Below, one piece after another: positions 2,451 through 41,600 of a DNA stretch of 64,000 nucleotides; position 1 is the stretch's first letter; every line of letters begins with the position of its first letter. The position numbers and the translations under genes are program-made. Under the pieces are notes generated by a model. That model did no database searches. It was given only the letters and a program-made list of their open reading frames with translations, and had not been told where the DNA came from. The stretch is from the NCBI GenBank assembly GCA_964035575.1, contig OZ037865.1, positions 620,001 through 684,000 on the forward strand, in the 5' to 3' direction. The stretch comes from Rhynchopus sp. YZ270_cl-10. Its lineage: Eukaryota > Euglenozoa > Diplonemea > Diplonemida > Diplonemidae.

Positions 2451-2683
2451 CACCCCACGTGGCATGATGGTGGCATGATGAACGGAAAAAAAAATCTCCA
2501 AAAAACGTGGGATGATGGCATGATGGCCTGCCAAACAACGCAGAAAAAAAAAGGGTATTTTTGGTGGGTTGATGGTGGGATGATGGTTTATGGTCGGGGG
2601 GGGAAAGCCATTTTCCGTGGGTTGATGGTTGATGGTTAGCGTCAGGCCTGACCCATTTGACCGCCCCTAGGGGGGGGGGGGTA

Positions 2684-4086
2684 GGGGGGGTCACATCCCA
2701 TGTTAAAAGTGAGGACACCGACCAAAAAAAATTTTTTTTGAGAAAAAAATGGACATCACCCTGAAAAACCAGAAAATATGGTCCCCAGGTGACCTACAAT
2801 TCAATTCCGCCTGGTTTTGGACACTTCTGAGCACTTGTGGGGGTCTAATTCGGATTTTTCAAAAAAAAAAAAACGGCCTGGGACAGGGTTTGTACTTTGG
2901 CACCTTTCAAATCGGGGTACAATCAAAACCCATTAAAAACACCGTTGGGACGCATTGAGAGGGCGGGAAAAGTGCCGGGGGCACTGTATAGGCGGTTCTA
3001 CGCCAAGTCCGGTCTAAAAGCCTTGTGTAGGCGCAGTGGAATGGCAGTAAAGGCAAAGCGCCGTATCCACTGTGGAATAGGCCTGCTGAAGGTGTCCTCA
3101 GAGGCGATTCTGCAAGTCCTGGGGAGATTGAGTTTAAGAAAACACATGAAAAGGGGAGGAAAGTGATGTGTGTGGCATTGGGCCTCCCACGCGTCCTCCT
3201 CGCGGGTCATTGCGCACGGCTTGTCGTCAAGCAGTCTGGCCTTGCCATGTTGGAGCAGTGTGCCTAAGTTCCCAATACGGCGTTCCTTGCCCTTGTGAGC
3301 TTTGAGGACGTCTCGCTCTTGCCGCTATATTTTGTGGCGTGCCTGTCCGTGTTCACAAGGGATGTCTCTTTCCTCCCACAGTAATCTGGGTGTGGGGTCT
3401 GAAGAAGACAAAGAAGACGAGGCAGATGCGGGGTGGTGCTGTAGTCGAGTCTATGACTGGATATCCATATACGTGTCTAGTACACGGCTATTGTAGACTG
3501 AACTGCAAAACCAAGGGGGGAATTGGGCATTGCAATATCTGGAAAGTCATACGAGGTGTTTTTTTCCGCAAGGGAAGGTACCCTGAGGGACCGGGTGAGG
3601 CAGTGACGGCAGATCTGCTCGATAATTTACACCTGACTAATTTTCCTCCCTAAATTGATCACTCCCTGGCCTATTAATGGTGTGGGTACCTAAGCGCGTG
3701 TATACATTGGTCACTACGACCCACAAAATACAGATGCCAGGTGACCGTCTTGTCTTCTTTTGGCTGTATTCAAACGCACTTAGATGACATTAGTCAAGAT
3801 GTATCCTTTACTTCCTAAAATATGAGTCATGGGCTGTTGCCATGGCCATATCTCGTTTATGTGCTAAAAAATAGGAATAAGCAAGGTACAGACCCTGTCC
3901 CAAGACCCCTTTTTTTTTCGGAATTTTGATTTTCTGGTCACTTCCGGTCACTATTTTTGGTATTTTTGGGCCTCCAGGACGTTTTCTAGGGGATCTTGGG
4001 TAGTGACTTGTGGGGTCGGACACCGCGCTGCGCGTAGAATTCAAAAACCCTGAAAAAGTGCATTGTCCTCCCCTTGTGACCCCCCC
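2684..4086. mobile_element. TA-flanked foldback element (TAGGGG class)
   Basis: Bounded by TA at 2682-2683 and 4087-4088. Left end GGGGGGGTCACA matches the inverted right end. Inner inverted pieces also match, for example GGGACAGGGT near 2881 with ACCCTGTCCC near 3893. A 12-G tract and a second TA (2668-2669) precede it, giving CCCCTA, then G's, then TAGGGG. No coding capacity is convincing. It is one of a class whose members all begin TAGGGG and end CCCCTA. Confidence 0.6.
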
Positions 4087-4088
4087 TA

Positions 4089-5099
4089 GGCATAGGTGCC
4101 CGCCGAGTCGTTTTTGGGCGAGTTGTCGGAACTTTACGATTTCACCTAACAACTCGCCCAAAAACTCGGACAACTCGGCCACAACTCGCCCTATACTCGG
4201 CACAACTCGCCCTATACTCGGCACAACTCGGCCACAACTCGGCCACAACTCGCCCATTTTTACAGGCAAAAACATACAGGGATGGGAGGTGACGTTGTAA
4301 GGTTACACACATGTAACGTTGGTACAACACATAATCTCAAGAAAAACAACCAGGGCTAAGGCCAAACGCCACTCATTACATGCACCTTGTCATATGACTA
4401 GTCATAGGTGGTAACTAGGTCGTGGTGGTCCATGGGCCACCGTGCACACTCACGGTTTTTGGTAATTGCTGGGGGGAATGGGATATACTCCGTACATGGA
4501 TACCCACACAGAACACACGGTTCCCCAGACATCTGTCAGGCAATCACTGATTCACTTCACACAGGTCGGGCAGGCGCTGCCTGCCCATCCTCTTTTCCTG
4601 TCTGCTATCGATTCCAGGTTCACAACGTTCACACGTTTAGTCAAAATGCTTTGGGCGACGACTTCCTTTGGGATACACAAAACCACACAAAGCGCACATT
4701 CACAGACCAGCTGTGAAGCGTGGGATGCACAAGATAAAACGTGATGTGGTGTACCTGTGTACCTGTGTACCTGTGTACCTGTGTACCTGTGTACCTGTGT
4801 ACCTGTGTACCTGTGTACCTGTGTACCTGTGTACCTGTGTACCTGTGTACCTGTGTACCTGTGTACCTGTGTACCTGTGTACCTGTGTACCTGTGTACCT
4901 GTGTACCTGTGTACCTGTGTACCTGTGTACCTGTGTACCTGTGTACCTGTGTACCTGTGTACTTGTGTACCTGTGTACCTGTGTTTTTGTAGCCATAAAA
5001 AATCCCAAAAAAAAACAACTCGCCCAAAAAAAATGGGCGAGTTGTTGGCCGAATTTGGGCGAGTTGCCGAGTTGTTTTAACTCGCCGGGCACCTATGCC
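4089..5099. mobile_element. Foldback element A, copy 1 (GGCATA-capped)
   Basis: Flanked by TA on both sides (4087-4088, 5100-5101). Termini GGCATAGGTGCCCG are inverted at the right end with one mismatch nearby. The left arm (4110-4260) repeats ACTCGCCC/ACTCGGCC and the right arm (5017-5090) repeats the same motif inverted. Between them lies a core of about 600 bp with no credible gene, and an 8-bp satellite at 4748-4984. A second copy is at 15719-16746, nearly identical. The core recurs inverted inside an unrelated-ended element at 12848-14890. Confidence 0.88.
4748..4984. repeat. 8-bp satellite (GTACCTGT)n in element A copy 1
   Basis: About 29 copies of GTACCTGT, one variant GTACTTGT near 4961. 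The second copy of the element has about 35 units at the same place (16354-16631), and the related core at 13469-13500 has only about four, so the array has expanded in place. Confidence 0.95.
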
Positions 5100-5114
5100 T
5101 AGGGGGGGGGAATA

Positions 5115-5901
5115 GGGGCGGTCATATCCTGTATTAAAAGTGTGAGAAAATGACATTTTTCAAAATGTTGTCAAAAGCGATTCTAAGGTAAAAAAAAGTA
5201 GAAAATCCACCCCACAGGCCCAAAAAAATGTGGTGTGCCCCGTTTCCCACCCTTTTTGTGCCTCTCAGGTACCCAAATCTCACTTTTTAAAAAATTGCCT
5301 ACATGTGGTACCTGAGTGCCCCCCTGGTTTGCCCCTTCAGGTTGACTATGAAACAGAAAACACCCCAATATGGCCCAGAACATACAGCAAAGGGTATATT
5401 TCACCCCCAAAACCCCACAGGAGACCCACAAAACCGTTACTGGGGTGTTTCGTGGCACCTGTTGGTGCTCAAACCTCATAAAACCTGAAACACCGGTCAG
5501 GCAGGGAAAATAGGCCAAAATAGGCCAAAATAGCCTGAAAATGGCCTAAAAACGCCAATATTTTATTTCAAACACCCAGAAAGTTGCAGAAACCCGATTC
5601 CAGGGTGGTCCTGGGCACCTGTGGGGGCGCATGCCCCATAAAACATCAAAAAAACGGTGTGGAACCGGTGTGGGAGGGTGTTTTTGCAAATTGCCCACAA
5701 ATTGCCTGCCTCAGGTACCACATGTAGGCAATTTTTTAAAAACCGCGATTTGGGTCACTGAGAGGCACAAAAAGGGTGGAAAGCGGGGCACACCACATTT
5801 TTTTGGGCCTGTGGGGTGGATTTTCTTGGTTTTTACCCTTTTTGTGGGGGTTTTGGGCATTTTTGAAAAATGTCATTTTCTCACATAGATATGACCCCCC
5901 C
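5115..5901. mobile_element. TA-flanked foldback element (TAGGGG class)
   Basis: Bounded by TA at 5113-5114 and 5902-5903. Left end GGGGCGGTCATATC pairs with right end GATATGACCCCCCC. The inverted arms continue with TGTGAGAAAATGACATTTTT and its complement near 5862-5886, and with a roughly 130-bp stretch at 5200-5325 that is inverted at 5705-5830. No gene. Nine G's separate it from the end of element A. Confidence 0.75.
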
Positions 5902-6112
5902 TAGGCATACATGGTAAGCGAACAAAAAATTCGCTTTATTCGCTTTTGGTTCGCTTTTTTATTCGCTTTATTCGCCGGCGAATAAAGCGAATAAAGCGAA
6001 CCAAAAGCGAACGAAAAAGCGAACAAAAAGCAACGTATTTTTTGTCAAGTCTAGTGTGTCGAGTCTAGTCCCCCGAGATCCCCCAATACCCGCAACGACG
6101 CCAAAATAAGGC

Positions 6113-6481
6113 TACTGTACTGTACTGTACTGTACTGTACTGTACTGTACTGTACTGTACTGTACTGTACTGTACTGTACTGTACTGTACTGTACTGTAC
6201 TGTACTGTACTGTACTGTACTGTACTGTACTGTACTGTACTGTACTGTACTGTACTGTACTGTACTGTACTGTACTGTACTGTACTGTACTGTACTGTAC
6301 TGTACTGTACTGTACTGTACTGTACTGTACTGTACTGTACTGTACTGTACTGTACTGTACTGTACTGTACTGTACTGTACTGTACTGTACTGTACTGTAC
6401 TGTACTGTACTGTACTGTACTGTACTGTACTGTACTGTACTGTACTGTACTGTACTGTACTGTACTGTACTGTACTGTACT
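6113..6481. repeat. 5-bp satellite (TACTG)n, about 74 copies
   Basis: Uninterrupted pentamer array. The complement reads as repeating YSTVQ in all minus frames, which is not a protein. Confidence 0.97.
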
Positions 6482-6489
6482 CCCAATCC

Positions 6490-6636
6490 CCTGTGTATAC
6501 TGTGTATACTGTGTATACTGTGTATACTGTGTATACTGTGTATACTGTGTATACTGTGTATACTGTGTATACTGTGTATACTGTGTATACTGTGTATACT
6601 GTGTATACTGTGTATACTGTGTATACTGTGTATACT
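6490..6636. repeat. 9-bp satellite (TGTGTATAC)n, about 16 copies
   Basis: Nonamer array. Its complement GTATACACA is the same unit that fills 53451-54032 in a different element 47 kb away. Confidence 0.95.
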
Positions 6637-6882
6637 CAGTACTCAGCACCCACTAGCTCTCAGTAAGCTCTCACAGCCTGTTACGTGTCCCACGGAGACG
6701 ATCATAGATCACCCAAAGGCGAATAAAAGGCGAATAAAGCGAATAAAAAAGCGAACCAAAAGCGAATAAAGCGAATAAAGCGAATAAAAAAGCGAACCAA
6801 AAGCGAATAAAGCGAACTTTTTATTCGCTTTTTTGGAAAAGCGAATAAAGCGAATTTTTTGTTCGCTTACCATGTATGCCTA

Positions 6883-7922
6883 GGGGGGGGGGAGCAGTGA
6901 GACCCTTTTTTCTGTCACACCCCCCAAAAAATCATGAAAAAGTGTAAAAAAAATATCCGAAAACACAAAACCACCCCAGAAAACACATTTGTGGGACTAT
7001 TTCTTACGTTTTGGTGCCTTTTTGGCACTTTTTGGCACTTTTTTTCTCGATTTTTCGACACTTTTTGTCGCGTTTTCACCCAAATTCCCCCTTTTCAGAG
7101 GGGATTTGATACAAGGCGATTTATCAAAAAATTCAAAATTTTGAAATAGCCCAAAACAAGAGGAAAAGTGGTTTTTTCCAGTCATATGTGTGCACGGAGT
7201 GATTTCCGTGGGGTTTTGGAGCCAAAAGTCCAGTTTTTTTCATGTCTTTGCTGAAAATTTTGAATTTTTTTTATACACAAACCACATTTTAGCCGGGAGG
7301 AAGAAGTGTGACAGAAGTGTGACATCGGAGAGGTTTCGAGCCAGAGGTCACCAAAATGGGCAAAACCATCTGAAAACAATTTTTTCCACCCCCAGTGGGG
7401 TCCGGCAATCACTTTCGAGTGGTTTTGGGGACTTATGTGAACCTGTGGACAATTTTTTTGGGGTTTTTATGTGTGTAAACATGCTAAGAAGTGAGGGCAG
7501 TACTGCTTTTTTAAGTGTTTCAGACACTACAGAATACATCTGGGGCCCACACAGGACCCCTAAAAGCTGCAAAAACCATACATTTCCACCCTGGGACCCC
7601 ACCGGATGTGGACCGAGGTGGTTTTCGGGTGCTTAGAAGGCCTAATGTCTCCTCAAATATTTTTTTTGAAAAGTGTTGAAAATTGACCCAATAGCGTTAC
7701 GCGAGCGTTACGCATTTTTGGCCTTTTTTTCACAAAAAACCGATTTTTTTTAATCAGGAAAGTCTCTGTAGAGGTCGTCAGGTGGTTTAATGGGATATTT
7801 GGGTGATCCCCAGGGCGATTTGCGGCCAGGTACGACCTTTTTGGTGGATTTCTTCACCTAAATTTCAAAAAAATGGGTTTGTGACAGTATTTGTACAGGG
7901 ATTTATACACCACTGACCCCCC
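6883..7922. mobile_element. TA-flanked segment, TAGGGG class, weak inverted ends
   Basis: Lies between TA at 6881-6882 and 7923-7924. Left end GGGGGGGGGGAGCAGTG and right end CACTGACCCCCC are a short inverted match. I could not see long inverted arms, so it is assigned to this class by position and ends only. No convincing gene. Confidence 0.4.
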
Positions 7923-9331
7923 TAGGCATACATGTCATGCGAAGAGATTCTTCGGATTCTTCGCATTTTCAAAAATCCCAAAAATTCTTCGTATTTTCTT
8001 CGTATTTTCTTCGCATATTCTTCGCCTACTTCGCATTCTTCGCATATTCTTCGCATTTTCCAACATGCGAAGAATATGCGAAGAATATGCGAAGAATGCG
8101 AAGTGCATATTCCGTGCACACCTCTTCCTCTTTTTTTCTGTGATTTATGTCCCACCTTACTATTTTTGTTTTTAAAACGCTGACGAGAAAAACACAATAC
8201 ACACGAGATATAAATATTTTGGCATTGAATGGCACGTGCACGTTTACGAACTGAGCCATGATTGCCCTTAGAGTCCCACGGTAACACGTGCAAAATCATA
8301 GAGTTTTTTTGGCTGTTAAAAAGGCTGGGGTATAAAGAGGTCGCGTGATTCGTCGAGCGGTTGTGAACCGCCTCCGTTCTCTTACGGTACGGAACACCCA
8401 CCTCCTACCCTTTGCATGAGCTCGACTGCGTTTTAGCACGTTTCAACTACTCTTTTTTCTCGTTCTGTACCCAGAACAACCTCCTCTCCAAGCAGCAAAC
8501 CCCACCCCTGACCAGGGGAAGCCTCCTGGGCCCATAAGCGGAACTATTTACTCACTGATCCTCTCATATGTGGATGGATGGATTTTTCAAATGTATGTTC
8601 GCAACTCCCATAAAAAAGTAGCGCACCGTGCGCCTGCGGCGCGGACAAAATTTGGTTTTGCGAATCCTAAATATTTTTTGCTAGCTCGTGTGGTTGATGA
8701 GCGAGAACGAAACCAAATCGATAGCAACGCCTCGTGCACTAGCTAAAACACTTGAATGGTCACAGAACACAACGCAGTGCATGGTTTTGTGGGTTGTTTT
8801 TGCCCACAGAAGTACCCCTGTGCGGCCTAGACCTGGTTCTAGCACCCCAGAATCGCGTTTCCCAGTCCATATAGCCGGGTATGGGCCCAAAAAGCCACCC
8901 AAAAAGGCGAAAATCCCGGTTTTTGGTGAAAAACGCCTGTTTTGCCCACAGGGTACTTAAGGAACGCACGTTTCTAAAGCATTTCCCACGTAAACTCGCG
9001 ACACGAAAATAGGAATTAAAAACAAATCTCTCACAGATCTGATTTGGTGATTCGCATTTTTGAGGCCCAATCTTTCCAACGCCGAAAAAATCTTACACTT
9101 TGGTGCATTTTCGGGTGGGTGCACCAGGAGGGTACTGGGAGGGCAGCAAGCTTAAAAACCTAAACACAAGTGTTTAGGAATTACGAGCGGTAGCCCACAG
9201 CTCTACCCTATCCATGATATAGTTTGGCTGTGATAATGTGCGATTTATGGCACAATCTTTGAAATGTTGCGCACATGGCTTCAACAGAAAAGTTTGACCC
9301 TTTGCCTCTCCACTCTGTGGCTGGAAGGGAG

Positions 9332-9561
9332 CTGAGAATAAGCAGGGTCCCGGGTACTGTCCCAGGACTAGAACTAGGACGGGTACTGGTCACTGGGTAC
9401 AGTCCCAGTCCTAGGGACTGGGAATACCCCTCCATCCATGCCCCAGCCTCCCGCGCCCGGGTCCCTGACCCGCTTTCAGGCGTTTTCACAGCGTTTTCGA
9501 CATATTGTGCCCAGTCCCACTGAGAATAACCGGGTCCCGGGTCCCCAAGTCTTATTCTCAG
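9332..9561. mobile_element. Small foldback inside element C
   Basis: Starts CTGAGAATAAG and ends CTTATTCTCAG. Near the left end the sequence GGGTCCCGGGT follows and recurs near the right end. About 230 bp with GGGTACTG/CAGTCC-type internal repeats and no coding content. No target duplication was found, so mobility is inferred from the inverted ends alone. Confidence 0.45.
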
Positions 9562-9595
9562 CCATGGCCTCCCGTCAAGGAAAAATCAGGCACTG

Positions 9596-9732
9596 CAACG
9601 TCAATATTCAATAATATGATCAATATTTCAATACTATTGAAATATTGACAGTTTTCAGTCAATATTATTGATACTTTCAATATTCAATCAATAATATTCA
9701 TCACCAAATCAATATATTGACGATATTCAATA
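9596..9732. repeat. AT-rich AATATTGA repeat patch
   Basis: Irregular direct and inverted copies of TCAATATT/AATATTGA. It lies near the inner edge of element C's right arm. Function unknown. Confidence 0.7.
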
Positions 9733-10141
9733 TATTTATGAAGCCATGTCTGTTGTTTTCTTTTTTATACAGTAAGGTGGGGCAAAATATCACAGAAAAA
9801 AGAGGAAGAGCTGTTATGGAGGAGCACAAAAAAGAGCAAAACAGACAAACGAATATAGTAAATTATTTTCCAAACGTATTGCATACTCGTTGAAAATTTA
9901 AAGGAAACGGCGTGAATAAAAGAAAAATGCAACTTATTTCCCAGTGCGATCATCTGCACCTTAGCACTTTCGATCCCTTTGTGGGCAAAGTATTGGTGGA
10001 AAAAATTCTTCGCATTTTCTTCGCATATTCTTCGCATTTTCCGAATGCGAAGAATATGCGAAGAGGAATACGAAGAAAATACGAAGAATCCGAAGAATCT
10101 CTTCGCATGACATCTATGCCTAGGGGGGGGGGGGGGGGGTA

Positions 10142-12442
10142 GGGGATACGACTCCAGCCATTTTGGCTGGGACCAAACGCACGGAAAATTCATTTGGCAT
10201 TATCTGGCCATCTCCAAGGCAACTGCGGGTGAAAAACACCCTCAGAGTGGGTCACAGGGGGCCTGTGGGTCGAAAAACGACCCAGAAGCCACCCCAGAAT
10301 ACAAAAAAATTTTTTCACGTTTTGGCCACTTTGGGCAAAATAGCGATTTTTCGAGAAAAAAATCAAAAACCGGGATATTTTTTGACATCACAAAGCCTCC
10401 TTTGGCACAAATATACCCCAAAAGTGGCCTGTGAGTCCATTCCAACCTGTTTTGGACATATTTGACACTTTTGGAAGTGTTTTTTTGGTGTTTTTAGGTC
10501 AAAAAAATGCCCAAGACGTCCCCAAGACATCCCCAAGACACTTTGCACACCCCCTGTTACGGTCATATTTTTTTCGTTTTTTTGCCTGAAACCCCCAAAA
10601 TACCCCTCCCGGACCCCACATAGTCCCGAATATCCATCACACACCCACTCAGAGTGAGTAGAAGCACCCAGGGCGTTCGCCCCGGGGCGAAAAATATTTT
10701 TTTTCGTTAAAAAAATCTTTTCCTGAAAAAATGACATTTTATTTCGCCCCAGGGCTTCGCCCCACCGGGGCGAAACCCTGTATAAATAAATAAATAAATA
10801 AAAAAAGGGGGAAAAATTTTATTGTTCACTTTGTCAAAATCTCTTTGTTTTTCTCTTTGTCTATTTTTCCTGCATTTTTTATTCTCTTCTTTGTACTTTC
10901 TTTTGTTTTGGTTGTTGTTAGATAAGCTCAATCGCCTATCGAGTTCTGTGAATAGCACGGAACTCCTTTTCATGTGTATCCATGGAAATCAGTATCATAT
11001 GTGATACCGGGGAGAGAAAAATTGGAGGTAAAAAATTTTGAAAAAAGGTGTCGTTTGAGAAAAACAAACAAACGGACGCGCTGTGTGAAAAACGAGTGTT
11101 TCTCTGCGCGTGATATTTTGTGGGGAAGAATAAAACATTATGAAAAAAGCTCGTTGCGTTCCCACTATCGTTTCCGCTGCGCTCTCACTAGCGTTCCCAC
11201 TCCATTCGGTTTTCTCTTACTTAAAAAAAGAGAGAGAGAGAGATTTCTCCCCACCACCCTGTAGACCCCCCCGGAGGGGGGGTCGCAGAGGGGTGTCCAC
11301 TGTACTCAAAATCATCCGCAAACCCGCCTGCTGTGAGAGGAAGTTTCCCCAGCACTCCCGCTCGCTCCTCAATCCTGCAGTCTGCTGAAGGTGTACCGTA
11401 CCCCCTGTTATAGAAGGTGTCACTGCTCGTGTCAACTCTATCTTCAATGGCAGAGAGTTGAAAATAATCAAAATAAGGATGAAGTCTCATATGACAGATG
11501 CCTCTCTCTTGTACATCTGCTTGATTAAACAACACAAAGAGACCCTCAGTGAGGGGGGATTGATGAAATTCTCCATCGTTTTGCTGGTTTTAGTATCAGG
11601 AAAGTGCAGCTGTAATATCACTTGTGCTGGGGAAGGGATCACGCGCAAATCGCAAATTTTTTTTTGACCATTCAGTACCAGGGATTCACCCCACGAACTA
11701 ACTTCTCTCCGGCGGGAAAATTTTTTTTGACCTATTTTAAGCACTAGTAAAAAAACGAAAATTTCGGGGGTTTTGGCATTTCGCCACGATCAGGAAAAAA
11801 CGATGGCGATAGCGAACGCCCTGGAAGCACCCCAAAAAAAATATTTTTTAAAGCCCTTCAACTTCAACATGGATGCTGCCGAAACTGAAGCACAATTTTA
11901 GGGCTTTAAAAAATATTTTTTTTGGGGTGCTTCTACTCACTCTGAGTGGGTGTGTGATGGATATTCGGGACTATGTGGGGTCCGGGAGGGGTATTTTGGG
12001 GGTTTCAGGCAAAAAAACGAAAAAAATATGACCGTAACAGGGGGTGTGCAAAGTGTCTTGGGGATGTCTTGGGGACGTCTTGGGCATTTTTTTGACCTAA
12101 AAACACCAAAAAAACACTTCCAAAAGTGTCAAATATGTCCAAAACAGGTTGGAATGGACTCACAGGCCACTTTTGGGGTATATTTGTGCCAAAGGAGGCT
12201 TTGTGATGTCAAAAAATATCCCGGTTTTTGATTTTTTTCTCGAAAAATCGCTATTTTGCCCAAAGTGGCCAAAACGTGAAAAAATTTTTTTGTATTCTGG
12301 GGTGGCTTCTGGGTCGTTTTTCGACCCACAGGCCCCCTGTGACCCACTCTGAGGGTGTTTTTCACCCGCAGTTGCCTTGGAGATGACCAGATAATGCCAA
12401 ATGAATTTTCCGTGCGCAAAAAATGGCTGGAGTCGTACCCCC
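10142..12442. mobile_element. Long foldback element F, interrupted by a hAT element
   Basis: Lies between TA at 10140-10141 and 12443-12444. Left end GGGGATACGACTCCAGCC, right end GGCTGGAGTCGTACCCCC. Arms of about 550 bp are nearly perfect inverted copies and meet at a short loop near 11855-11895. The left arm is split at 10668 by a 1,155-bp hAT element; the uninterrupted right arm shows the pre-insertion sequence. A relative, partly truncated, is at 31499-32575. No gene. Confidence 0.88.
10669..11823. mobile_element. Non-autonomous hAT-type element, copy 1
   Basis: Begins CAGGGCGTTCGC and ends GCGAACGCCCTG, flanked by a perfect 8-bp target duplication GAAGCACC (10661-10668 and 11824-11831). 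Terminal CAGGG and an 8-bp duplication are hallmarks of the hAT superfamily. It carries no transposase; the interior has an ATAAATAAATA patch near 10787 and no credible gene. An inverted copy with its own 8-bp duplication is at 21026-22246. Confidence 0.93.
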
Positions 12443-12444
12443 TA

Positions 12445-12663
12445 GGCATAGTGTGCAGACGAACAAAATGTTCGTCGATGTTCGTCGTGGGGGGAAAAAA
12501 AATTTTTGTTCGTCGATGTTCGTCGTTGTTCGTCGTGGGTTGCCCTTGTGGCAGGGACCTGTTCGTCGATGTTCGTCGATGTTCGTCGACGAACATCGAC
12601 GAACAAAACCGACGAACATTTTGTTCGTCGACGAACCAAAAATGTTCGTCTGCACACTATGCC
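12445..12663. mobile_element. Minimal foldback element D (GGCATA-capped)
   Basis: 219 bp between TA at 12443-12444 and 12664-12665. Termini GGCATAGTGTGCAGACGAAC are a perfect inverted pair. The arms are little else but copies of GACGAACATC and its complement. It is the smallest member of the GGCATA class and shows the minimal architecture: cap plus arrayed private motif. Confidence 0.9.
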
Positions 12664-12665
12664 TA

Positions 12666-12703
<38 letters not shown>
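12666..12703. repeat. 38-bp G homopolymer
   Basis: Uninterrupted run of 38 G directly after the TA at the right end of element D. Shorter G tracts follow the right ends of other elements (2670-2681, 5102-5110, 10123-10139). Confidence 0.95.
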
Positions 12704-12704
<1 letters not shown>

Positions 12705-12847
12705 GCCCTCCACCCTTCAAAAGAACACAACATGAGGTCTTCAAAAATGCAGCGTGCTTAGGGGTGGCATCAAAACAAAAAACGCGGACAATGTCCGCGT
12801 TTTTGGGGAATTTCAGACCCCCCCCTCCCCCCCCCCAAAACGCGGAC

Positions 12848-14890
12848 ACCACGGTCTAGTCAGGGGGACGACTAGTGCCACTACTAGTCGTAACGACTAG
12901 TGTAAACCACTACTAGTGCCACTAGTAGCACGACTAGTGGCACTAGTCGTACGACTAGTCGTACTACTAGTGTACTAGTCGTACGACTAGTCTACTGGTA
13001 GTGCTACCAGTAAACTGGTAGGGATACAGGCTACAAAACTTATGCAAACTGAGGGGTTTGATACACAGTGATCTCAAGATCCTCCACGTAGCTACCACGT
13101 AACTCTAGCTCTCGATTCGCACCCCCTCCCACCCCAATCACACTAGCTGCCATACAGGACAATATCGGCAGCCCACAAACAACGGCCTTTGTGGTGTTTT
13201 GTGTATAAACACGTTGGTTGTATGGCCAATCCATGGTCACATGGGCACCATCGTTTGTGGCCCACGCACGCTTTTTAGGCCGCGAATACGCTTTTCGAGC
13301 CGCACAAACCAGGATGTGGGCCATTTTAAAAAGTTTTTGGCTGGTTTCCGCCACCAAAACCCTAGAAAGTAGCTTTTATTTGTTGGTCGTTTGGTGCTAT
13401 GGGAAATCAGTCAACGACCTGTCAATATCGGGGGGGGTCATTTTTTAATAGTACTTTGCCATTTTTTCAGGTACACAGGTACACAGGTACACAGGTACAC
13501 CACATCACGTTCTATCTTGTGCATCCCAGCTTGAACGACTCTTTGCCGCTTCACAGCTGGTATGTGAATGTGTTCACAGACCAGCTGTGAAGCGGCAAAG
13601 TAGAAATCATCCTCAGCTTCGAGGGGCTCAGGGCTGTGTGACGCTGCTGATTTCGACACGTTGATCGCGCTTTGTGTGGTTTTGTGTATCCCGAAAGGAG
13701 TCATCACCCAAAGCATTTTGACTGAACGTCTGAACCTGGAATCGATAGCAGACAGGAAAAAGAGGATGAGCAGGCAACGTCTGCCCGACCTGTGTGAAGT
13801 GAATCAGTGATTGCGTGACAGATGTCTGGGTAACCGTGTATTCTGTGTGGGTATCCATGTACGGAGTATATCCCATTCCCCCCGGCAATTGCCAAAAACC
13901 GTGAGGGTGCGCGATGGCCCATGGACCACCACGTCCTAGTTACCACCTATGACTAGTCATATGACAAGGTGCATGACCAGTTACACGATAAGACTAACTA
14001 ACGACAAGACCCCTGTATGTAATGAGTGGCGTTAGGCCTTGTCATTTGACAGGGGTCTTGTCATTGTTTAGTCTTGTCATGCAACTAGTCGTTGTGGTGC
14101 AACGGACCCGTTGGGGGGCACCCAAATACACGACGATGAAACCAGAACCCCCATAAATTTCACGACGATTTTTGAGGATTTTTTAGGTCTTACCAGAAAT
14201 CAGCGCCGAAAGCTGCCCAGTACCACCCCCAAAACCATTGTACCACTACCTGATACCACATGTAACTTACATGTAGTACATGTTATATTACATGTACTAC
14301 ATGTAACAAAAGTTCCATGAATACCACATGGAACACCCGTTACTTCAGTCGTCGTGTACCCTGAGGGTCCGTATGGGCCACCGTGTGTCTGTGTGTGTGT
14401 CCCTCCAAAAAATCGCTTAGGGCCGTTAAAAAATGACCCCCCCTTATGGCAACGACCTGTCAGCGACCTGTCAATATCGACCCTCCCCGGAGCACCATCG
14501 TTACTTTTATGTTTTGGTCAGCAAAATCACTCGTACACAACCTGAGGGTACGTACCAGGGTGCGGTTGCCAGGTCTCGAAGCCCCGGAGTAGGGTAATCA
14601 CACCAGTAAAGTATTAGTATCAAACCCCCAGTTTGTATAAGTTTTGTAAATAATTTTGTTTTTGTCCACAATCTGTCTGCAGGGACTTCACAAGAAGCCT
14701 TTGTACTGTGCTTTCACTTGGAATATACCTGTAGCACTACCAGTACACTAGTAGCACGACTAGTACACTAGTCGTACGACTAGTCGTACGACTAGTGGGT
14801 ACTAGTCGTGCTACTAGTGTACACTAGTCGTAAAACACTAGTCATTTCGGCTAGTCGTGCTACTAGTCGTCCCCCTGACTAGACCGTGGT
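12848..14890. mobile_element. Foldback element M with CTAGTCGTACGACTAG arms
   Basis: Ends ACCACGGTCTAGTCAGG and its complement, inserted into L's CGCGGACATT (GGAC is repeated at 12844-12847 and 14891-14894; because C/G also pair outside, the duplication could be GA instead). Arms (12862-13010, 14735-14870) are arrays of ACTAGTCGTACGACTAGT. A second inner inverted pair lies at 13040-13060 and 14610-14640. The core at about 13469-14030 is the element A core in reverse orientation, with only about four units of its satellite. Confidence 0.87.
14267..14306. repeat. 40-bp ACATGT palindrome
   Basis: Nearly perfect palindrome built of ACATGT/GTACATGT motifs around a TATA centre, inside element M. 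Role unknown; it could extrude as a cruciform. Confidence 0.8.
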
Positions 14891-14959
14891 GGACATTTTT
14901 TGTTTTTTTTTCCCCTATTTTTTGCTGGTTTTTGGGTGACGGGGTGCAAATTCGTGACC

Positions 14960-15640
14960 CAAAACACAGTTTTTTGGCATTTCCGGAATCCGTCCAGAAA
15001 GTGGTGGGGTCAATCTCGAAAATTGGACAATTTTTTGACCACTTAAATTTTTGAAAATATGAGCCCGGTCACTAATACGTGGGGCCCATTTTCGGCCAAA
15101 AAATGCTGCTGAAAAAATTTTTCAGGTGAAAATTTTTCAGCCCCAAAACATGCCGCGATTGGCATTTCCGGGATCTGTCCGCGCTGTGGTGGGGTCAATT
15201 TGCCGAAATGGCCAAGTTCTTGGTTTTGGTCAAAATGAGTGTGAGGTAAAGGGGCCAAGGTAAATCCCACAACCCAGATTTTCTCTCTCTGATGCTGAAA
15301 CCATGAAAATGTGCAAAAACACCGGCATTTGCATTTCCGGAATCCGTCCGTTCTGTGGTGGGGTCAATTTGCCAAAATGGACAAGTTCTTGATTTTGGTC
15401 AAAACCCGTCAGTGTAAGGTAAAGGGGTCCAAGTGTTTGCCTGTAGAAGCACATGGTAGCAGGGGTTTAAGGGCCCCCCATTCGTGTACATTTTGCAAAA
15501 AAACGCGGGCATCTTGTATTTTTTATTTTGCCCGAAAACACCGGCATTTGCATTTCCTGAATCCGCCGGTTCTGTGGTGGGGTCAATTTGCCGAAATGGA
15601 CGAGTTTTTATAAATTTTGGTCAAAATCGTGTACAACCCC
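14960..15640. repeat. Tandem of four dispersed ~75-bp repeats
   Basis: Four head-to-tail copies, starting about 14970, 15160, 15325 and 15545, of a unit reading GGCATTTCCGGAATCCGTCC, then GTGGTGGGGTCAATTTGCC, then GGACAAGTTCTTG. Single copies occur at about 18737-18812 and 21843-21905 (minus), 34797-34850 (minus) and 53359-53445 (plus). A diverged version is at 22425-22500 and in the arms of the palindrome at 36904-37227. No open frame is conserved. Confidence 0.85.
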
Positions 15641-15718
15641 AGTGAAGAAAAAAATTTTCGAGGAAAAAAAAACCCCAAAATGTCCGCGTTTTCTGGAATT
15701 TCAGACCCCCCCCCTCTA

Positions 15719-16746
15719 GGCATAGGTGCCCGCCGAGTCGTTTTTGGGCGAGTTGTCGGAACTTTACGATTTCACCTAACAACTCGCCCAATACTCGGAC
15801 AACTCGGCCACAACTCGCCCTATACTCGGCACAACTCGCCCTATACTCGGCACAACTCGGCCACAACTCGCCCATTTATACAGGCAAAAACATACAGGGA
15901 TGGGAGGTGACGTTGTAAGGTTACACACATGTAACGTTGGTACAACACATAATCTCAAGAAAAACAACCAGGGCTAAGGCCAAACGCCACTCATTACATG
16001 CACCTTGTCATATGACTAGTCATAGGTGGTAACTAGGTCGTGGTGGTCCATGGGCCACCGTGCACTTTTGGTAATTGCTGGGGGGAATGGGATATACTCC
16101 GTACATGGATACACACAGAACACACGGTTCCCCAGACATCTGTCAGGCAATCACTGATTCACTTCACACAGGTCGGGCAGGCGCTGCCTGCCCATCCTCT
16201 TTTCCTGTCTGCTATCGATTCCAGGTTCACAACGTTCACACGTTTAGTCAAAATGCTTTGGGCGACGACTTCCTTTGGGATACACAAAACCACACAAAGC
16301 GCACATTCACAGACCAGCTGTGAAGCGTGGGATGCACGAGATAAAACGTGATGTGGTGTACCTGTGTACCTGTGTACCTGTGTACCTGTGTACCTGTGTA
16401 CCTGTGTACCTGTGTACCTGTGTACCTGTGTACCTGTGTACCTGTGTACCTGTGTACCTGTGTACCTGTGTACCTGTGTACCTGTGTACCTGTGTACCTG
16501 TGTACCTGTGTACCTGTGTACCTGTGTACCTGTGTACCTGTGTACCTGTGTACCTGTGTACCTGTGTACCTGTGTACCTGTGTACCTGTGTACCTGTGTA
16601 CCTGTGTACCTGTGTACCTGTGTACCTGTGTTTTTGTAGCCATAAAAAATCCCAAAAAAAAACAACTCGCCCAAAAAAAATGGGCGAGTTGTTGGCCGAA
16701 TTTGGGCGAGTTGCCGAGTTGTTTTAACTCGCCGGGCACCTATGTC
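15719..16746. mobile_element. Foldback element A, copy 2
   Basis: Near-identical to 4089-5099, flanked by TA (15717-15718, 16747-16748). It differs by satellite length (16354-16631, about 35 units), a few short indels in the ACTCGGCC arm, and a T for C in the right cap (TATGTC). It sits inside composite L, immediately left of the foldback at 16749. Confidence 0.88.
16354..16631. repeat. 8-bp satellite (GTACCTGT)n in element A copy 2
   Basis: About 35 perfect units; longer than in copy 1. Confidence 0.95.
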
Positions 16747-16748
16747 TA

Positions 16749-17942
16749 GGGGAGGGTCACTGTACTCGATAAATGCGATTTTTCCGATTTTGATCCTCAG
16801 AACCGCAGAAGTCCCCGAAAACTATACCAAACCACCTAGGGGACCCAAAAAACGCACCAGCGCCCCAGTTTTGACACAGAAACACTCAGATGATGTCTGA
16901 AATGCAATTTTTAAAAAATGCCTACAGAACTTGTACCTGCCCACCCCCCGTAGATAGAGCAAATCACACATCCATCACGCCTCAGTGTGGGCCAGGGGCC
17001 AGAAAAGCCCCCAAAGCCACATATTTTCACCCCAGAACCTATCCCGAGGGGTACCCAGGCTGTTTCGGGGTGTTTAGAGGGACTTGGTGGAACTTAGAAC
17101 CATGTTTCAAAAAGGGTACAAGTACTGTGCCAAGGGTTTTCCCACCCTAAGGTATCTGAAGCCGTCAAAAAACGTGAAGTAGGCAATAAATCAAAAAATA
17201 CCCCCTGAGGTCAAAAAAACCACACCATAGGCCCATTTGGACCCCAAAAATCGAATTCCGCCCGGTTTTGGGCACTTTTGACCACTTCTGAGCGACTTTT
17301 TTGCGTTTTTTAAAAGTGACCACCAACTTGTACCTGCCCACCCCCCCTGTAGATAGAGCAACTCACACATCCATCACGCCTCAGTGTGAGCCAGGGGCCA
17401 GAAAAGCCCCCAAAGCCACATATTTTCACCCCAGAACCTATCCCGAGGGGTACCCAGGCTGTTTCGGGGTATTTAGAGGGACTTGGTGGAACTTAGAACC
17501 ATGTTTCAAAAAGGGTACAAGTACTTGGTCCCTTGAGAGGGCAAACCCTTGGCACAGTACTTGTACCCTTTTTGAAACATGGTTCTAAGTTCCACCAAGT
17601 CCCTCTAAACACCCCGAAACAGCCTGGGTACCCCTCGGGATAGGTTCTGGGGTGAAAATATGTGGCTTTGGGGGCTTTTCTGGCCCCTGGCTCACACTGA
17701 GGCGTGATGGATGTGTGAGTTGCTCTATCTACAGGGGTGGGCAGGTACAAGTTCTGTAGGCATTTTTTAAAAATTGCATTTCAGACATCATCTGAGTGTT
17801 TCTGTGTCAAAACTGGGGCGCTGGTGCGTTTTTTGGGTCCCCTAGGTGGTTTGGTATAGTTTTCGGGGACTTCTGCGGTTCTGAGGATCAAAATCGGAAA
17901 AATCGCATTTATCGAGAGATTTAACGTGCAGTGACCCTCCCC
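16749..17942. mobile_element. Foldback element E (TAGGGG class)
   Basis: Between TA at 16747-16748 and 17943-17944. Ends GGGGAGGGTCACTG and CAGTGACCCTCCCC. Arms of about 400 bp (16749-17150 and 17530-17942) are inverted copies, the left having lost about 11 bp near its tip. A third, direct copy of the inner arm lies at 17305-17525, so the arm has been duplicated in tandem. No gene. Confidence 0.85.
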
Positions 17943-18087
17943 TACCCCCCCCCCTCCCCCCCCAAAAACGCGGACATTGTCCGCGTTTTTTGTTTTGATG
18001 CCACCCCTTAATAAGCCCCCTGCATCATGCCAGACATAGTAAACATCTAGAGCGTACCCCGACAACATCCTTGACAACACAGTGACC

Positions 18088-37305: not shown

Positions 37306-38165
37306 CAGTGTTGGCAGAGTACGTGTACGTTGTACTTTTTGTACTTTGTACTTTTGTACTTTTTGACGTACTTTTTGGCGCCCAAATCCGTACTTTATGA
37401 CCCTATATTTTACCCTGGGAATTCGACACAAGAAGAAGTCCGTTTTGGCTGACCGCTGTGAAGCTGACCCGCATCCCCCCTCACTCGTGCCAGTGCGAGG
37501 GAACATTCTCCGATATGGGGTTCGTCACTTGTGCACGTCGGCACAATATGGGACCTGTGAACATTCACCGCGCCACCTCGCTGTACAAAAAACTGAGGGC
37601 GAACAGGGAGGAGTGCTGGTGAGGGAGAATCCGGAGGGGGAGAACGAACCACCGACAAAGCGGAGTAAGAAGACTGATGACGCGCCCGTAAGCGAGATTG
37701 ACTTTACTACCATTCTGTGAACCCCATAACCCCATCCCTTTTCCCCCTCCCAACTGTTCGAGGTGTAGTCATCTACCCCCTACTGTATCTCGACTTTGTT
37801 GGACCACACGTGATCACACGTGACCGACAGGAAACACCATCTCCCATTGCTTCTTGACTCCGAGGCGTCGCTGTTCGAGAACCAGGTGCCGCTGTCTGTG
37901 AACCTGCGAAGCACGCGCACATTCTTGAGAAGCCGTTCATAGCTCTGTGCACCCTCCTATTTGTACTTTTTAATCATTTTCCGTACTATACTGCCCTCAA
38001 ACCTTTTTTTTGCCCCCACACTGGTACACCAGCTGCACAAACCCGGCCACAAACCCAGATGTACTTTTTGTGTATTTTTTGTACTTTTTACGTACTTTTT
38101 GTACTATTGTACTATTGTACTTTTTACGTACTTTTTAAAATTGGACACGTACTCTGCCAACACTG
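37306..38165. mobile_element. hAT-type element I, copy 2, with transposase remnant
   Basis: Ends CAGTGTTGGCAGAGTACGTG and inverse, sitting in a G tract (at least eight G on each side, consistent with an 8-bp GGGGGGGG duplication). Subterminal AAAAAGTAC arrays match copy 1 in inverse orientation. The interior keeps the 3' end of a hAT transposase (37413-37720). Confidence 0.88.
37413..37720 (+). pseudogene. hAT transposase C-terminal fragment
   Basis: The frame through 37443-37622 reads FWLTAVKLTRIPPHSCQCEG then TFSDMGFVTCARRHNMGPVN, a good match to the hAT dimerisation region (Trp, IPP-S, E..FS..G, R-N). It stops at 37620-37622. A second frame continues with a charged tail (PPTKRSKKTDDAPVSEIDF) to 37720, so a frame change near 37610 has broken the end. 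About 100 codons remain of a protein normally of 600 or more. It shows that element I descends from an autonomous hAT transposon. Confidence 0.75.
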
Positions 38166-38643: not shown

Positions 38644-41600
38644 CTAAACATACTCATGAGAGGACCTCAGTGTGAGACTCGACACCGCTTTCCTGTCTTC
38701 CTTGAGCATGCCCCCGCAGACGAGGAAGTGTGAGTCCTTTGTCAGCGTCATTGTGTGCAGCTTGGCGCCAACCTCGGCGGTGTGGAGCAACTTCCCGTTG
38801 AGGGAGTAGTGGAACAGGGTGCCTGCATCAGCCTTGCTGTACATGATTGTTGCCCCTGTGGCGGTGCTGGTTATGAGGTCGATGGGGTGCTTCTTCGGGT
38901 GGAGGAGGGTACGCTCATATGTTCCTTCGCTTATATTATACATGATGGCGGTGCCGTCACTGCTTCCTGAGACTATCACATCGAATGTTGGGTTGATAGC
39001 GACACACAATACCGGCTCCTCATGGCCAAACAACGTTGCCTGAAACTGCGCAGGCTGCCCCGACTTCAACCGCAACCGATACAACCGCAGCGTAGTGTCC
39101 TGCGACCCGGTCACCAAATACGAATAATCCTCACTCAACGCAAGGCACGTCACCACACCGTGATGTCCCGACAGCGTTTGGATCGCTGTCGGCGTTGAAT
39201 TTGTCCCTGCAACCAATTCACTGATAATCGCAGTATTATTCCACAACCCAGAGGAGATCAACACATGCCTCTCCGGCACCGAAGCGAAGACATAAGAGTA
39301 CATTGATGACGCGCATTTTTGAATCCCTGCCTGAAGAGGACGTGATTGGCAGGAAGGTTGCGGATCAAAATAAAAGCCTCGTCGCGATCCTACGGTACGT
39401 CGAGAGACGCCGGCAGAGAGTGAGGCACCTCCCAACGACCCTGCCATAGGGGGAAGCATATGGGCAGAGGCCTCCGCCGCAAGCAGGCCTGGTGACAAAT
39501 TCTTCTCCTCTGCGGTGCTGTGCAGGGAGGAGCTCTCTTGCGCCTTCCCCAACAGAACGCTGGCCTGCTGCTCCGTTACACTGCTCCCCGCCTTAAACGG
39601 ATGCACCACCACCGCACCCGAACTCCCTATCCCCACCAAATGCTCATGCGTTAAGTACAACTTCACCACCCTACTTTTCATAATACTGTACAACGCGCTC
39701 TGCGGAACCAACGCTGACGCCAAGGATTTGAAAGGATCGAAGATAGGGGTCACCGCATTTCTTGCAGGGTGTTTTTTGCGGAGAAGTTGTATCGGAGTTT
39801 GACCGAAATTATCGATATGCGCAACAATTCCTGGCATCAGACCGTCTTCGTCATTGCCAAGCTCTCTGGTCATTCTTTCATAGGTATATGGGTGATAGAC
39901 GTTAACTCCTTCGCGTGATGGGCTTTGTTTGTATCCAAATATCATATCAATCCAATGATGCAAATTCTGTGAGACATGCTCGGATTCCAGAGCATCTCGA
40001 TGGATCCTCACAAACTCTTGCGGACTGCTTGCCCATGCGGGAAGCTCTACCTCGCTAAACTTCCTCCCATCCTGGCGATGCCCAAACTTCACGTTGTTGT
40101 TGTTCACAAACATCTCCGGAAGGAAGAAAAACTCTGGGATCAGCTCTTTGACATCCGACGCTGCGTGCGTTACACCATGCCACATCTGAGACATAGAGTC
40201 GAACATACGGTCTGCATGATCAAACGGCCCTCCTTGCAAAATCCTACTCCCTGTAGTATACGGTTCAATGCGAATCAAATAGAAGAGAACAAAGCCGGAG
40301 TTGCTGTAGTGGCTTCCGTAATGGTAAGGCTCGCTGCCGCTGGCGTATAAAGAGTCGTATTTTTCTTGGAGGTCTTCGACGCGTGAGTCAGAACGACGGC
40401 CATCCATCCCCATACACCCCATAGGCACAGAGAGGTCGCGGTAAACGCTTTCATCCTCCAAGTCAATCTCCTTAGAGGTGTAGTCACTCAAAATCCATGG
40501 CATAACCGGGTATTGCGTCAAATCGTTCACCGAGCGCGACGCAAAATGGTTCAATGCCATGAGATATTCAAAGTTTGAGATTTCCCTTCGCACCCATTTT
40601 TCGGTCAGCTTTGACTTCTTGAAATCTGCCATCGGGTTTTTCGGGAGCTCTAATATCTTCAAAGACGCAGGGCGTGGGGCAATCTGAAAGAGAATCGTCT
40701 TCATAACCTGGACTGCGGCTTCCTTTGTGATAAAGTTGACTAAAATGGAGGTGCGGTCGGTGAATTGAAACTCCAAGGCGGAATACACCATCCGGTACCG
40801 ACGGAGGAATATCATCTCTAGGGTGTCAACAGAGAATTTATCGTCCTTCGGCTTTTCAACCAGCTTCTCGGCCTTCCCCATTTTTTGTACAATCGCAGCG
40901 TTCTCCTCATCAACGAGAAGCCATAGGTAGCGAGACGGGTTTCCACAGACCTGGAGGTTTCCACTCCACCCTTGCATCAACGTGATTAGCTCGCATGGAT
41001 ACCGCCTTCCCATTGAGGTAAGCTCGGGAACGTCTTCGACATCCTCCGCAGGCTCAGCCGCTTCATAGGGATCTGGGTTTTCTGCAGAATTTTCACGTTC
41101 AGTGGTTTCTTCTCTACAGCGGGCAACCTTTACTGCCTCAGCACGCTGTGCTTTTTCTCTATCATTCTGTGAAGCATCTGAATGATCCGTCAATTTCGGA
41201 TCTGCGCTAAGCTTTGGACGAATCTGGAAATACGGTTCCAATCCTACATCCCTCCGCGACCTACGTACCAGTCTTGTTCTTGCTGCGCTTTCGAATACAT
41301 CCTCTGTAGCCCAAACACCCCTTTGATCTGTCACAGCTGTTACCAAACTCCTCCAATGCTTTTCAGATGTGCGGTATAAATCGCGATAAATTTGAGGGAG
41401 AATCGAAGGGGGGAGCTCGAGAGGTTTTGCCGCTATTCCGGTGGTGTGTTTGAGAAGAACGTCTTTGATGCGGTCGCAGTTGCTTGCAACCTGGCGGCGG
41501 AGGGACATCAGTGTACGCTGCTTCCTTTGAATCAAATCCCCGGCCACAGCGCCGCACTCCTTTTCAATAAATCGGTTGACAGACTCCGCGCGCTTATTCA

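What the first reader, a model, noticed from the sequence alone, without database searches (positions are those of the whole stretch)
2668..17944. A chain of foldback elements joined by single TA dinucleotides in CCCCTAGGGG palindromes
Reading left to right, elements abut with only TA between them at 4087-4088, 5902-5903, 6881-6882, 7923-7924, 12443-12444, 15717-15718 and 16747-16748; at 5100, 10121 and 12664 a G tract follows the TA. Two end classes alternate: GGGG...CCCC and GGCATA...TATGCC. Each GGCATA element sits at the junction CCCC-TA-GGGG that two GGGG-class ends would form, and 2668 shows such a junction without an insert. This looks like a self-propagating landing platform: ends of one class create the target for the other, so arrays grow end to end. 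TA duplication is known for Tc1/mariner elements, but the long private-motif arms and the platform arrangement are not something I can match to a described family.
Basis: partly seen in the sequence, partly recalled or inferred. Interest (0 to 1): 0.85.

Follow-up and report, generated by a model that had tools for sequence, protein, structure and literature searches.

The report
Poly-G transposons create another transposon's target

Summary
(1) "GGCATA...TATGCC" elements are CATA...TATG elements with a 6-bp target duplication. CCTAGG is the commonest target; being a palindrome it mimics "GG caps + TA". Of 53 copies fetched with flanks, 47 have an exact 6-bp duplication, 17 of these not CCTAGG; the window's own fifth element has TCTAGG on both sides. 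(2) "GGGG" elements end in TA (TAGGGG...CCCCTA) and sit in G or C homopolymers (7 of 9 pairs). Eight paralogous empty copies of one occupied site have a bare G11-21 run with no TA. Such an insertion makes one CCCCTA|GGGG junction. So a one-way landing platform is supported; TA duplication and Tc1/mariner are not. (3) Long CATA members encode a transposase with weak hAT resemblance; window element 12447-12661 is a deletion derivative of one. A TAGGG-ended family carries a hAT domain; the one copy read ends at a G-run. hAT membership of the CATA class is unproven. The pieces have precedents; the combination is the new part.

The parts
2664..2673 (.). Empty CCCCTAGGGG junction: end of an upstream TAGGG-class element (TA 2668-2669) against a G-tract
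2670..2681 (+). G12 homopolymer between two TAGGG-class ends (target remnant)
2682..4088 (.). TAGGG-class foldback element (TAGGGGGGGTCACA...TGTGACCCCCCCTA)
   Evidence: ends read directly
4085..4090 (.). Left 6-bp duplication CCTAGG of CATA element 1
4091..5097 (.). CATA element 1 (1007 bp), arms of AACTCG motifs
5098..5103 (.). Right 6-bp duplication CCTAGG of CATA element 1
5113..5903 (.). TAGGG-class foldback element (TAGGGGCGGTCATATC...GATATGACCCCCCCTA); G9 tract 5102-5110 and AA lie outside its left end
5906..6878 (.). CATA element 2 (973 bp), arms of ATTCGCTT motifs, flanked by CCTAGG 5900-5905 and 6879-6884
6883..7924 (.). TAGGG-class element, right end CACTGACCCCCCTA; left end unclear (G10 tract 6883-6892)
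7927..10118 (.). CATA element 3 (2192 bp), arms of CTTCGCAT motifs, flanked by CCTAGG 7921-7926 and 10119-10124
10123..10139 (+). G17 homopolymer (target remnant)
10140..12444 (.). TAGGG-class element of the family TAGGGGRTACGACTCCAGCC (451 ends in the genome), inner 492-nt perfect inverted repeats
12447..12661 (.). CATA element 4 (215 bp), internal-deletion derivative of the 4573-bp coding element at C5 (L027); flanked by CCTAGG 12441-12446 and 12662-12667
12666..12703 (+). G38 homopolymer (target remnant)
12759..18010 (.). Probable outer TAGGG-class element (TAGGGGTGGCATC...GATGCCACCCCTTA) into which further elements are nested
   Evidence: (I20)
15721..16744 (.). CATA element 5 (1024 bp), same family as element 1; flanked by TCTAGG on both sides (15715-15720, 16745-16750): the 6-bp duplication visible inside the window
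16747..17944 (.). TAGGG-class foldback element (TAGGGGAGGGTCACTG...CAGTGACCCTCCCCTA) inserted in a C-tract (left C9 15706-15714 beyond element 5, right C10 17945-17954)
37306..38165. Separate hAT-type remnant CAGTGTTGGCAGAG...CTCTGCCAACACTG inside a G-tract of the repeat whose empty copies are

Best explanation
[quoted passage not shown] Tier 1 (TAGGG class) has ends TAGGG...CCCTA and inserts into G/C homopolymers. The tract survives on both sides, so it stays a target. One junction per insertion reads CCCCTA|GGGG. Tier 2 (CATA class) has ends CATA...TATG and private foldback arms. It prefers TA-centred targets, best CC-CCTAGG-GG, makes a 6-bp duplication, and therefore accumulates at tier-1 junctions and at other CCTAGG-rich repeats. 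Repetition of the two steps builds the chain. Shown: 6-bp duplication, homopolymer insertion with TA inside the element (one family), coding CATA members with the same ends. Inferred: that the encoded proteins do the moving, that tier 1 is hAT (hidden duplication probably 8 bp), that tier 2 is hAT-like, and that non-coding copies are moved in trans.
For: 6-bp duplication: 47 of 53 fetched copies exact, 30 CCTAGG and 17 other; among 23 copies not CCTAGG on both sides, 17 exact against mean 1.6 and maximum 8 when right flanks are dealt out anew 20,000 times; after merging sites with the same flanks 40 of 46 exact, 14 of them not CCTAGG; window element 5 TCTAGG/TCTAGG. Inner and outer letters agree in 16 of the 22 printed deviating cases, which a fixed GG cap would not give. 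Target: T 53/53, A 52/53, the five bases before and after mostly C and G, 38-48 of 53. Homopolymer: 7 of 9 paired insertions have at least 8 G or C on both sides, same base on both; G-runs and C-runs occur with either internal orientation; a tenth pair agrees; 8 empty sites for the site filled in L112/L113. Association: 12 of 66 family-a ends on C1-C7 have a TATGCCTAGGGG site within 60 bp, 0.05 expected. Coding: L027 853-aa frame without stop, 4573 bp, CCTAGG both sides; window element 4 matches its two ends at 95.6% and 98.0%. L029: two copies 99.94% identical over 3459 bp; 16 listed copies with an uninterrupted 507-aa frame. PF05699 weak in 3 of 3 relatives (E 0.061, 0.0074, 0.068), in overlapping stretches. 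TAGGGCAGTGC-ended family: 27 of 28 exact ends lie 598 or 615 bp from one of 34 listed copies of a hAT-domain exon; the one end read with its outside abuts G33.
Against: Six of 53 copies lack an exact duplication. Five of 53 CATA copies have neither outer CC nor outer GG and 17 have one side only, so tier-1 junctions are not required. Profile comparison of the CATA transposase with two hATs of this genome found nothing (probability 0.2%; three and two sequences only); no chain named hAT was among the matches to solved structures. Tier-1 duplication length cannot be read in a homopolymer. The poly-G flank of the TAGGGC family was read in one copy only. L118 has TTA instead of TA and L124 lacks the left tract. 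No coding member of the TAGGG families seen in the window was found. Homopolymer lengths may be assembly errors. No transposition was observed.
Confidence: 0.75

Rival explanations
1. One reading: both classes are TA-duplicating Tc1/mariner-like foldback elements with caps GGCATA and GGGG.
For: In the commonest CCTAGG context the strings fit.
Against: 6-bp duplications that differ from CCTAGG (17 of 53); TA absent from 8 empty homopolymer sites; frames of coding CATA members give weak hAT and no Tc1/mariner Pfam match.
Confidence: 0.03
2. The CATA class is not hAT but another or undescribed superfamily with 6-bp duplications (IS3EU also makes 6-bp ones).
For: Only sub-threshold PF05699 matches; no profile match to two in-genome hATs; one close relative (P0005, 43% over 77%) and one weak match (P0006, E 3.8e-6, 18% of the query) in the protein search, which scored 7993 candidates; only P0005 with the profile.
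Against: Landmarks of hAT transposases as I recall them are in order in the alignment: D (two sequences; P0002 starts after it), D, C..H..N and TRW in 3 of 3, SVT.VD..FS in 3 of 3 and the following KNKR in 2 of 3. Families with 6-bp duplications filed as hAT6 exist, and IS3EU ends TAYGG..CCRTA differ (PMC12730594, passages).
Confidence: 0.3
3. Tier 1 is not hAT; TAGGG-ended foldbacks are moved by some other transposase and only share the homopolymer niche.
For: No coding member was found for the families seen in the window; L126 and L127 have no stop-to-stop frame above 159 aa.
Against: A TAGGGCAGTGC-ended family is tied to a hAT-domain exon in 27 of 28 ends and ends at a G-run in the one copy read; a CAGTG-ended hAT-type remnant sits in a G-tract of the same repeat.
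Confidence: 0.35
4. The chain is a segmental or recombinational product (palindrome-mediated duplication), not serial insertion.
For: Elements 1 and 5 are near-identical and arms are palindromic; some insertion sites share flanks, for example L048, L053, L074.
Against: Each CATA element of the window carries its own matching duplication, and one is TCTAGG while four are CCTAGG.
Confidence: 0.05

Closest known systems
hAT superfamily, hAT6 and Buster groups (PMC12730594, passages; PMC3517528, passages)
   Same: hAT6 families make 6-bp duplications; Buster duplications are TA-centred (nnnTAnnn); MITEs by internal deletion; here landmarks in order and a weak C-terminal domain match.
   Different: Ends CATA...TATG, C/G-rich palindromic target, long foldback arms of private motifs, transposase too diverged for a confident hAT match.
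MuTAnT, Mutator-like elements targeting TA microsatellites (PMC4486113, abstract)
   Same: A DNA transposon with a coding member and short non-coding ones that inserts into simple repeats so that the repeat flanks the element.
   Different: Here the repeat is a G/C homopolymer, ends are TAGGG, and the insertion makes a new target for another element.
[quoted passage not shown]
   Same: One mobile element targets the end of another.
   Different: Bacterial IS1111 family; there the target lies in the host element's end. Here it is composite: element end plus homopolymer.
Tc1/mariner MITEs (recalled)
   Same: TA at the junctions.
   Different: TA is not the duplication.

Membership tests
Tc1/mariner | 2-bp TA duplication | tested here: not met
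   Exact 6-bp duplications in 47 of 53 CATA copies; no TA in 8 empty tier-1 sites
Tc1/mariner | DDE transposase of that superfamily in coding copies | tested here: not met
   No such Pfam match up to E 1 in 6 frames of three long CATA elements
hAT (CATA class) | Transposase with hAT C-terminal dimerisation domain | tested here: inconclusive
   PF05699 below cut-off in 3 of 3 relatives; hhalign to two in-genome hATs negative
hAT (CATA class) | 8-bp duplication (5, 6 and 7 bp groups known) | tested here: inconclusive
   6 bp here; a canonical hAT of this genome shows 8 bp, GGAAACTC; hAT5, hAT6, hAT7 are described
hAT (CATA class) | RNase H fold with inserted alpha-helical domain | not tested
   Structure job for P0005 was still unfinished at the last request
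hAT (TAGGG class) | YAGNG-type terminal repeat (rule recalled) | tested here: met
   TAGGG at the ends of family a, of the window elements named in parts and of L134
hAT (TAGGG class) | hAT transposase in a coding member with the same ends and target | tested here: inconclusive
   TAGGGCAGTGC family: PF05699 over cut-off, 27 of 28 ends at a fixed distance from it, G-run outside in the one copy read; none found for the families of the window
hAT (TAGGG class) | 8-bp duplication | not testable with these tools
   Target is a homopolymer, so the duplication is hidden
IS3EU | 6-bp duplication and ends TAYGG..CCRTA | tested here: not met
   6 bp met, ends CATA...TATG do not fit (definition)

The most novel reading that the evidence does not exclude
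The CATA elements are an undescribed transposase lineage whose target preference has been shaped by the junctions that poly-G-targeting transposons create, so that one transposon group continuously builds habitat for another in the same genome while regenerating its own: a two-species transposon ecology with readable target chemistry.
Probability: 0.3. Interest if true: 0.7.

Novelty: new variant of a known kind. Interest (0 to 1): 0.55.

Why it matters
It turns a puzzling array into a simple rule: homopolymer insertion keeps its own target alive and makes a palindrome that a second transposon prefers. That is a natural case of target construction between transposons, and a caution that a palindromic target can hide the real duplication length and make two bases of target look like element caps. 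If the transposase proves to lie outside hAT it would also be a new superfamily.

Tried and rejected
A TA duplication (Tc1/mariner) was considered first, then a 3-bp TWA duplication (PIF/Harbinger) for the GGGG class because of CTTAGG and CCTAAG junctions (L092 to L095); both fell to the 6-bp test and the empty sites. A coding TAGGGG member was sought in two long family-a copies (L013 with L126, and L127): no stop-to-stop frame above 159 aa in L126 and L127. Seven hAT loci of the genome were read in part: L128 is a canonical hAT; L129 and L130 to L133 showed no clear TAGGG end by eye; L134 did.

Literature: no paper held CCTAGG with target site duplication and transposon (0 papers). Searches for homopolymer or poly-G targeting and for nested or arrayed MITEs and foldbacks listed nothing that matched by title and start of abstract; only listings were seen there. 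The library holds open-licence papers only. The organism was not identified. The structure prediction of P0005 never finished.

Arms: a YTCG core was chosen after looking at the arms. In 10 of 12 arms tested at most 1 of 500 random stretches of the window (18100 on) had as many; in L026 399 and in L045 44 of 500 did. Against first-order Markov resampling only 1 of 12 arms (L037) exceeded the maximum of 500, so this stays a suggestion.

Sampling: searches list 82 of 82 and about 100 of 174 places. The 53 copies are the 37 short pairs among the places listed (the window's own pair and L027 apart), the 9 short pairs, and 7 of its 21 long pairs, of which two (on C2 and C80) were picked because one search had shown a deviating target. 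Without those 7 the count is 40 of 46 exact, 15 of them not CCTAGG (rows). Of the 15 family-a pairs listed up to C4:779345, both ends were read in 9 plus 1 (L013/L126), one end in 2; 3 were not taken, two of them beside CATA sites.
Full report
What is there. The window is part of a 152.4-Mb genome in 126 contigs. The junction strings of the finding are present. TATGCCTAGGGG occurs 836 times genome-wide against 2 for the reversed pattern. The empty palindrome CCCCTAGGGG occurs at 555 sites against 147 for its reversal.

The CATA class. CCTAGG is a palindrome, so "TA duplicated, cap GGCATA" and "CCTAGG duplicated, cap CATA" give the same string there. Copies in other targets decide. I fetched 53 copies with flanks (how they were chosen is in Tried and rejected). 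In 47 of 53 the six bases on either side of CATA...TATG are identical; 30 are CCTAGG and 17 are others such as ATTAGG, CCTATG, CTTAGG, CCTATT, CCTACG. Among the 23 copies that are not CCTAGG on both sides, 17 match exactly, against a mean of 1.6 and a maximum of 8 in 20,000 re-pairings. After merging sites with the same flanks, 40 of 46 match, 14 of them not CCTAGG. Six of 53 do not match exactly (L051, L054, L059, L088, L090, L091). Of 22 printed cases where an inner or outer dinucleotide deviates, 16 agree across the element.

Target preference. At the 53 sites T is 53/53 and A 52/53; C prevails to the left and G to the right. By category 23 lie beside a G or C run of at least 8, 5 in an AGTCC..GGACT repeat, 3 have CC and GG only, 17 have one side and 5 neither. 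The strict CCCCTAGG/CCTAGGGG form holds in 22 of 53. So the palindrome is a preference, not a requirement.

The TAGGG class. One family (GGGGRTACGACTCCAGCC after the TA) has 451 ends in the genome; among the places listed most pair about 1.2 kb apart. Both ends of nine copies and one end of two more were read. In 7 of 9 pairs the TA is followed outward by a run of at least 8 of G or C on both sides, the same base on both. One pair (L118/L119) has TTA after a C-run on the left; one (L124/L125) has neither TA nor tract on the left. A tenth pair (L013/L126) has C12 and C21. Both internal orientations occur with G-runs and with C-runs, so the tract belongs to the target and not to the element. The flanks of L112/L113 recur elsewhere without an insertion: eight copies of TTTGCTCGTT-G(11 to 21)-TTTTGGACCCC, no TA inside, one with an extra T. 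The right half of that repeat also borders another TAGGG family (L017), and in the window the repeat is filled by a CAGTG-ended element (37306-38165). Hence TA is the element's terminal dinucleotide, and the duplication, whatever its length, is hidden in the run.

How the chain forms (inference from the above). Insertion of TAGGG...CCCTA in a G-run gives G(n)TAGGG...CCCTAG(n): one junction is CCCCTA|GGGG, the best target of the CATA class. The run persists, so more TAGGG elements can enter. In the window five junctions carry a CATA element and the one at 2664 does not. On contigs C1 to C7, 12 of 66 listed family-a ends have a TATGCCTAGGGG site within 60 bp, 0.05 expected by chance. I saw nothing to suggest that CATA ends attract TAGGG elements, but made no separate test of it.

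Coding members. L027 is a 4573-bp CATA element with CCTAGG on both sides and an 853-aa open frame; an identical frame lies on C11. The window's 215-bp element 4 matches its two ends at 95.6% and 98.0%, so it is an internal-deletion derivative. L029 holds two 3.46-kb copies 99.94% identical whose 507-aa frame is 38% identical to the L027 protein; 16 listed copies have that frame of 507 aa without a stop, and an upstream 174-aa piece lies next to many of them, with short introns between as I read the DNA. Near-identity points to recent activity. L026 (7773 bp, CCTAGG on both sides) codes for other proteins, one with a weak C2H2-type match, possibly cargo. The protein search gave one close relative, P0005, 43% identical over 77%, and one weak match.

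Is it hAT? Pfam's hAT dimerisation domain is matched below its cut-off in 3 of 3 relatives in overlapping stretches, and landmarks of hAT transposases as I recall them appear in order in the alignment. A profile comparison with two hATs of this genome was negative, with very few sequences on either side. hAT groups with 5-, 6- and 7-bp duplications are described (PMC12730594, passages); Buster duplications are nnnTAnnn (PMC3517528, passages). I hold "works like a hAT" as likely and "is a hAT" as open. For the TAGGG class, a family whose last exon carries the hAT domain over cut-off (34 listed copies of that exon) ends TAGGGCAGTGC: 27 of 28 exact ends lie 598 or 615 bp from it, and the one copy whose outside I could read abuts G33. 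No coding member with the ends found in the window was seen.

Arms. Each CATA family has arms of its own short motif; many share a TCG core, but that was noticed afterwards and the test is weak. This resembles subterminal binding-site arrays of transposases (recalled), which would explain why arms are private while the four terminal bases are shared.

Known or new. Each piece has a precedent: 6-bp hATs, MITEs by deletion, targeting of simple repeats (MuTAnT, PMC4486113, abstract) and targeting of another element's end (IS5075, PMC8269217, abstract and passages). I found no description of the combination in the searches named in Tried and rejected.

Noticed in passing
window:12848-14890: A third foldback element, ACCACGGTCTAGTC...GACTAGACCGTGGT with arms of ACTAGTCG motifs, apparently flanked by GGAC on both sides (4 bp, one copy). 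Its interior is about 91.5% identical, inverted, to part of the interior of CATA element 1, so different arms enclose the same core.
   Followed up: partly
L128:454-3824: Canonical hAT, 3371 bp, ends CAGGGTCCTCAACC, 8-bp duplication GGAAACTC on both sides, 954-aa open frame; 27 of 139 rows have a 954-aa frame. It lies inside a stretch with CACATGATAGGGT repeats.
   Followed up: partly
L010:1509-1548: A CATA miniature of only 40 bp, a bare hairpin with both caps, between CCTAGG and CCTAGG.
   Followed up: no
L024, L058, L060, L079, L098 to L101: A repeat with AGTCCCCCTAGGGGGACT that hosts several CATA insertions: 5 of the 53 copies.
   Followed up: partly
L026:688-8460: CATA element of 7.8 kb with different coding content (748-aa frame with a weak C2H2-type match, 389-aa frame) and arms without the TCG core; possibly a carrier of other genes.
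   Followed up: no
window:55875-63489 (-): Three neighbouring sulfatase frames; before them a histidine-phosphatase frame (51830-52702) and a 3823-aa BEACH/neurobeachin-like frame (38644-50115).
   Followed up: no
window:1042-2455 and 6110-6640: Long simple repeats (8-bp TGCCATCA-type units; 5-bp GTACT units, then GTGTATACT-type units) beside or inside the elements.
   Followed up: no
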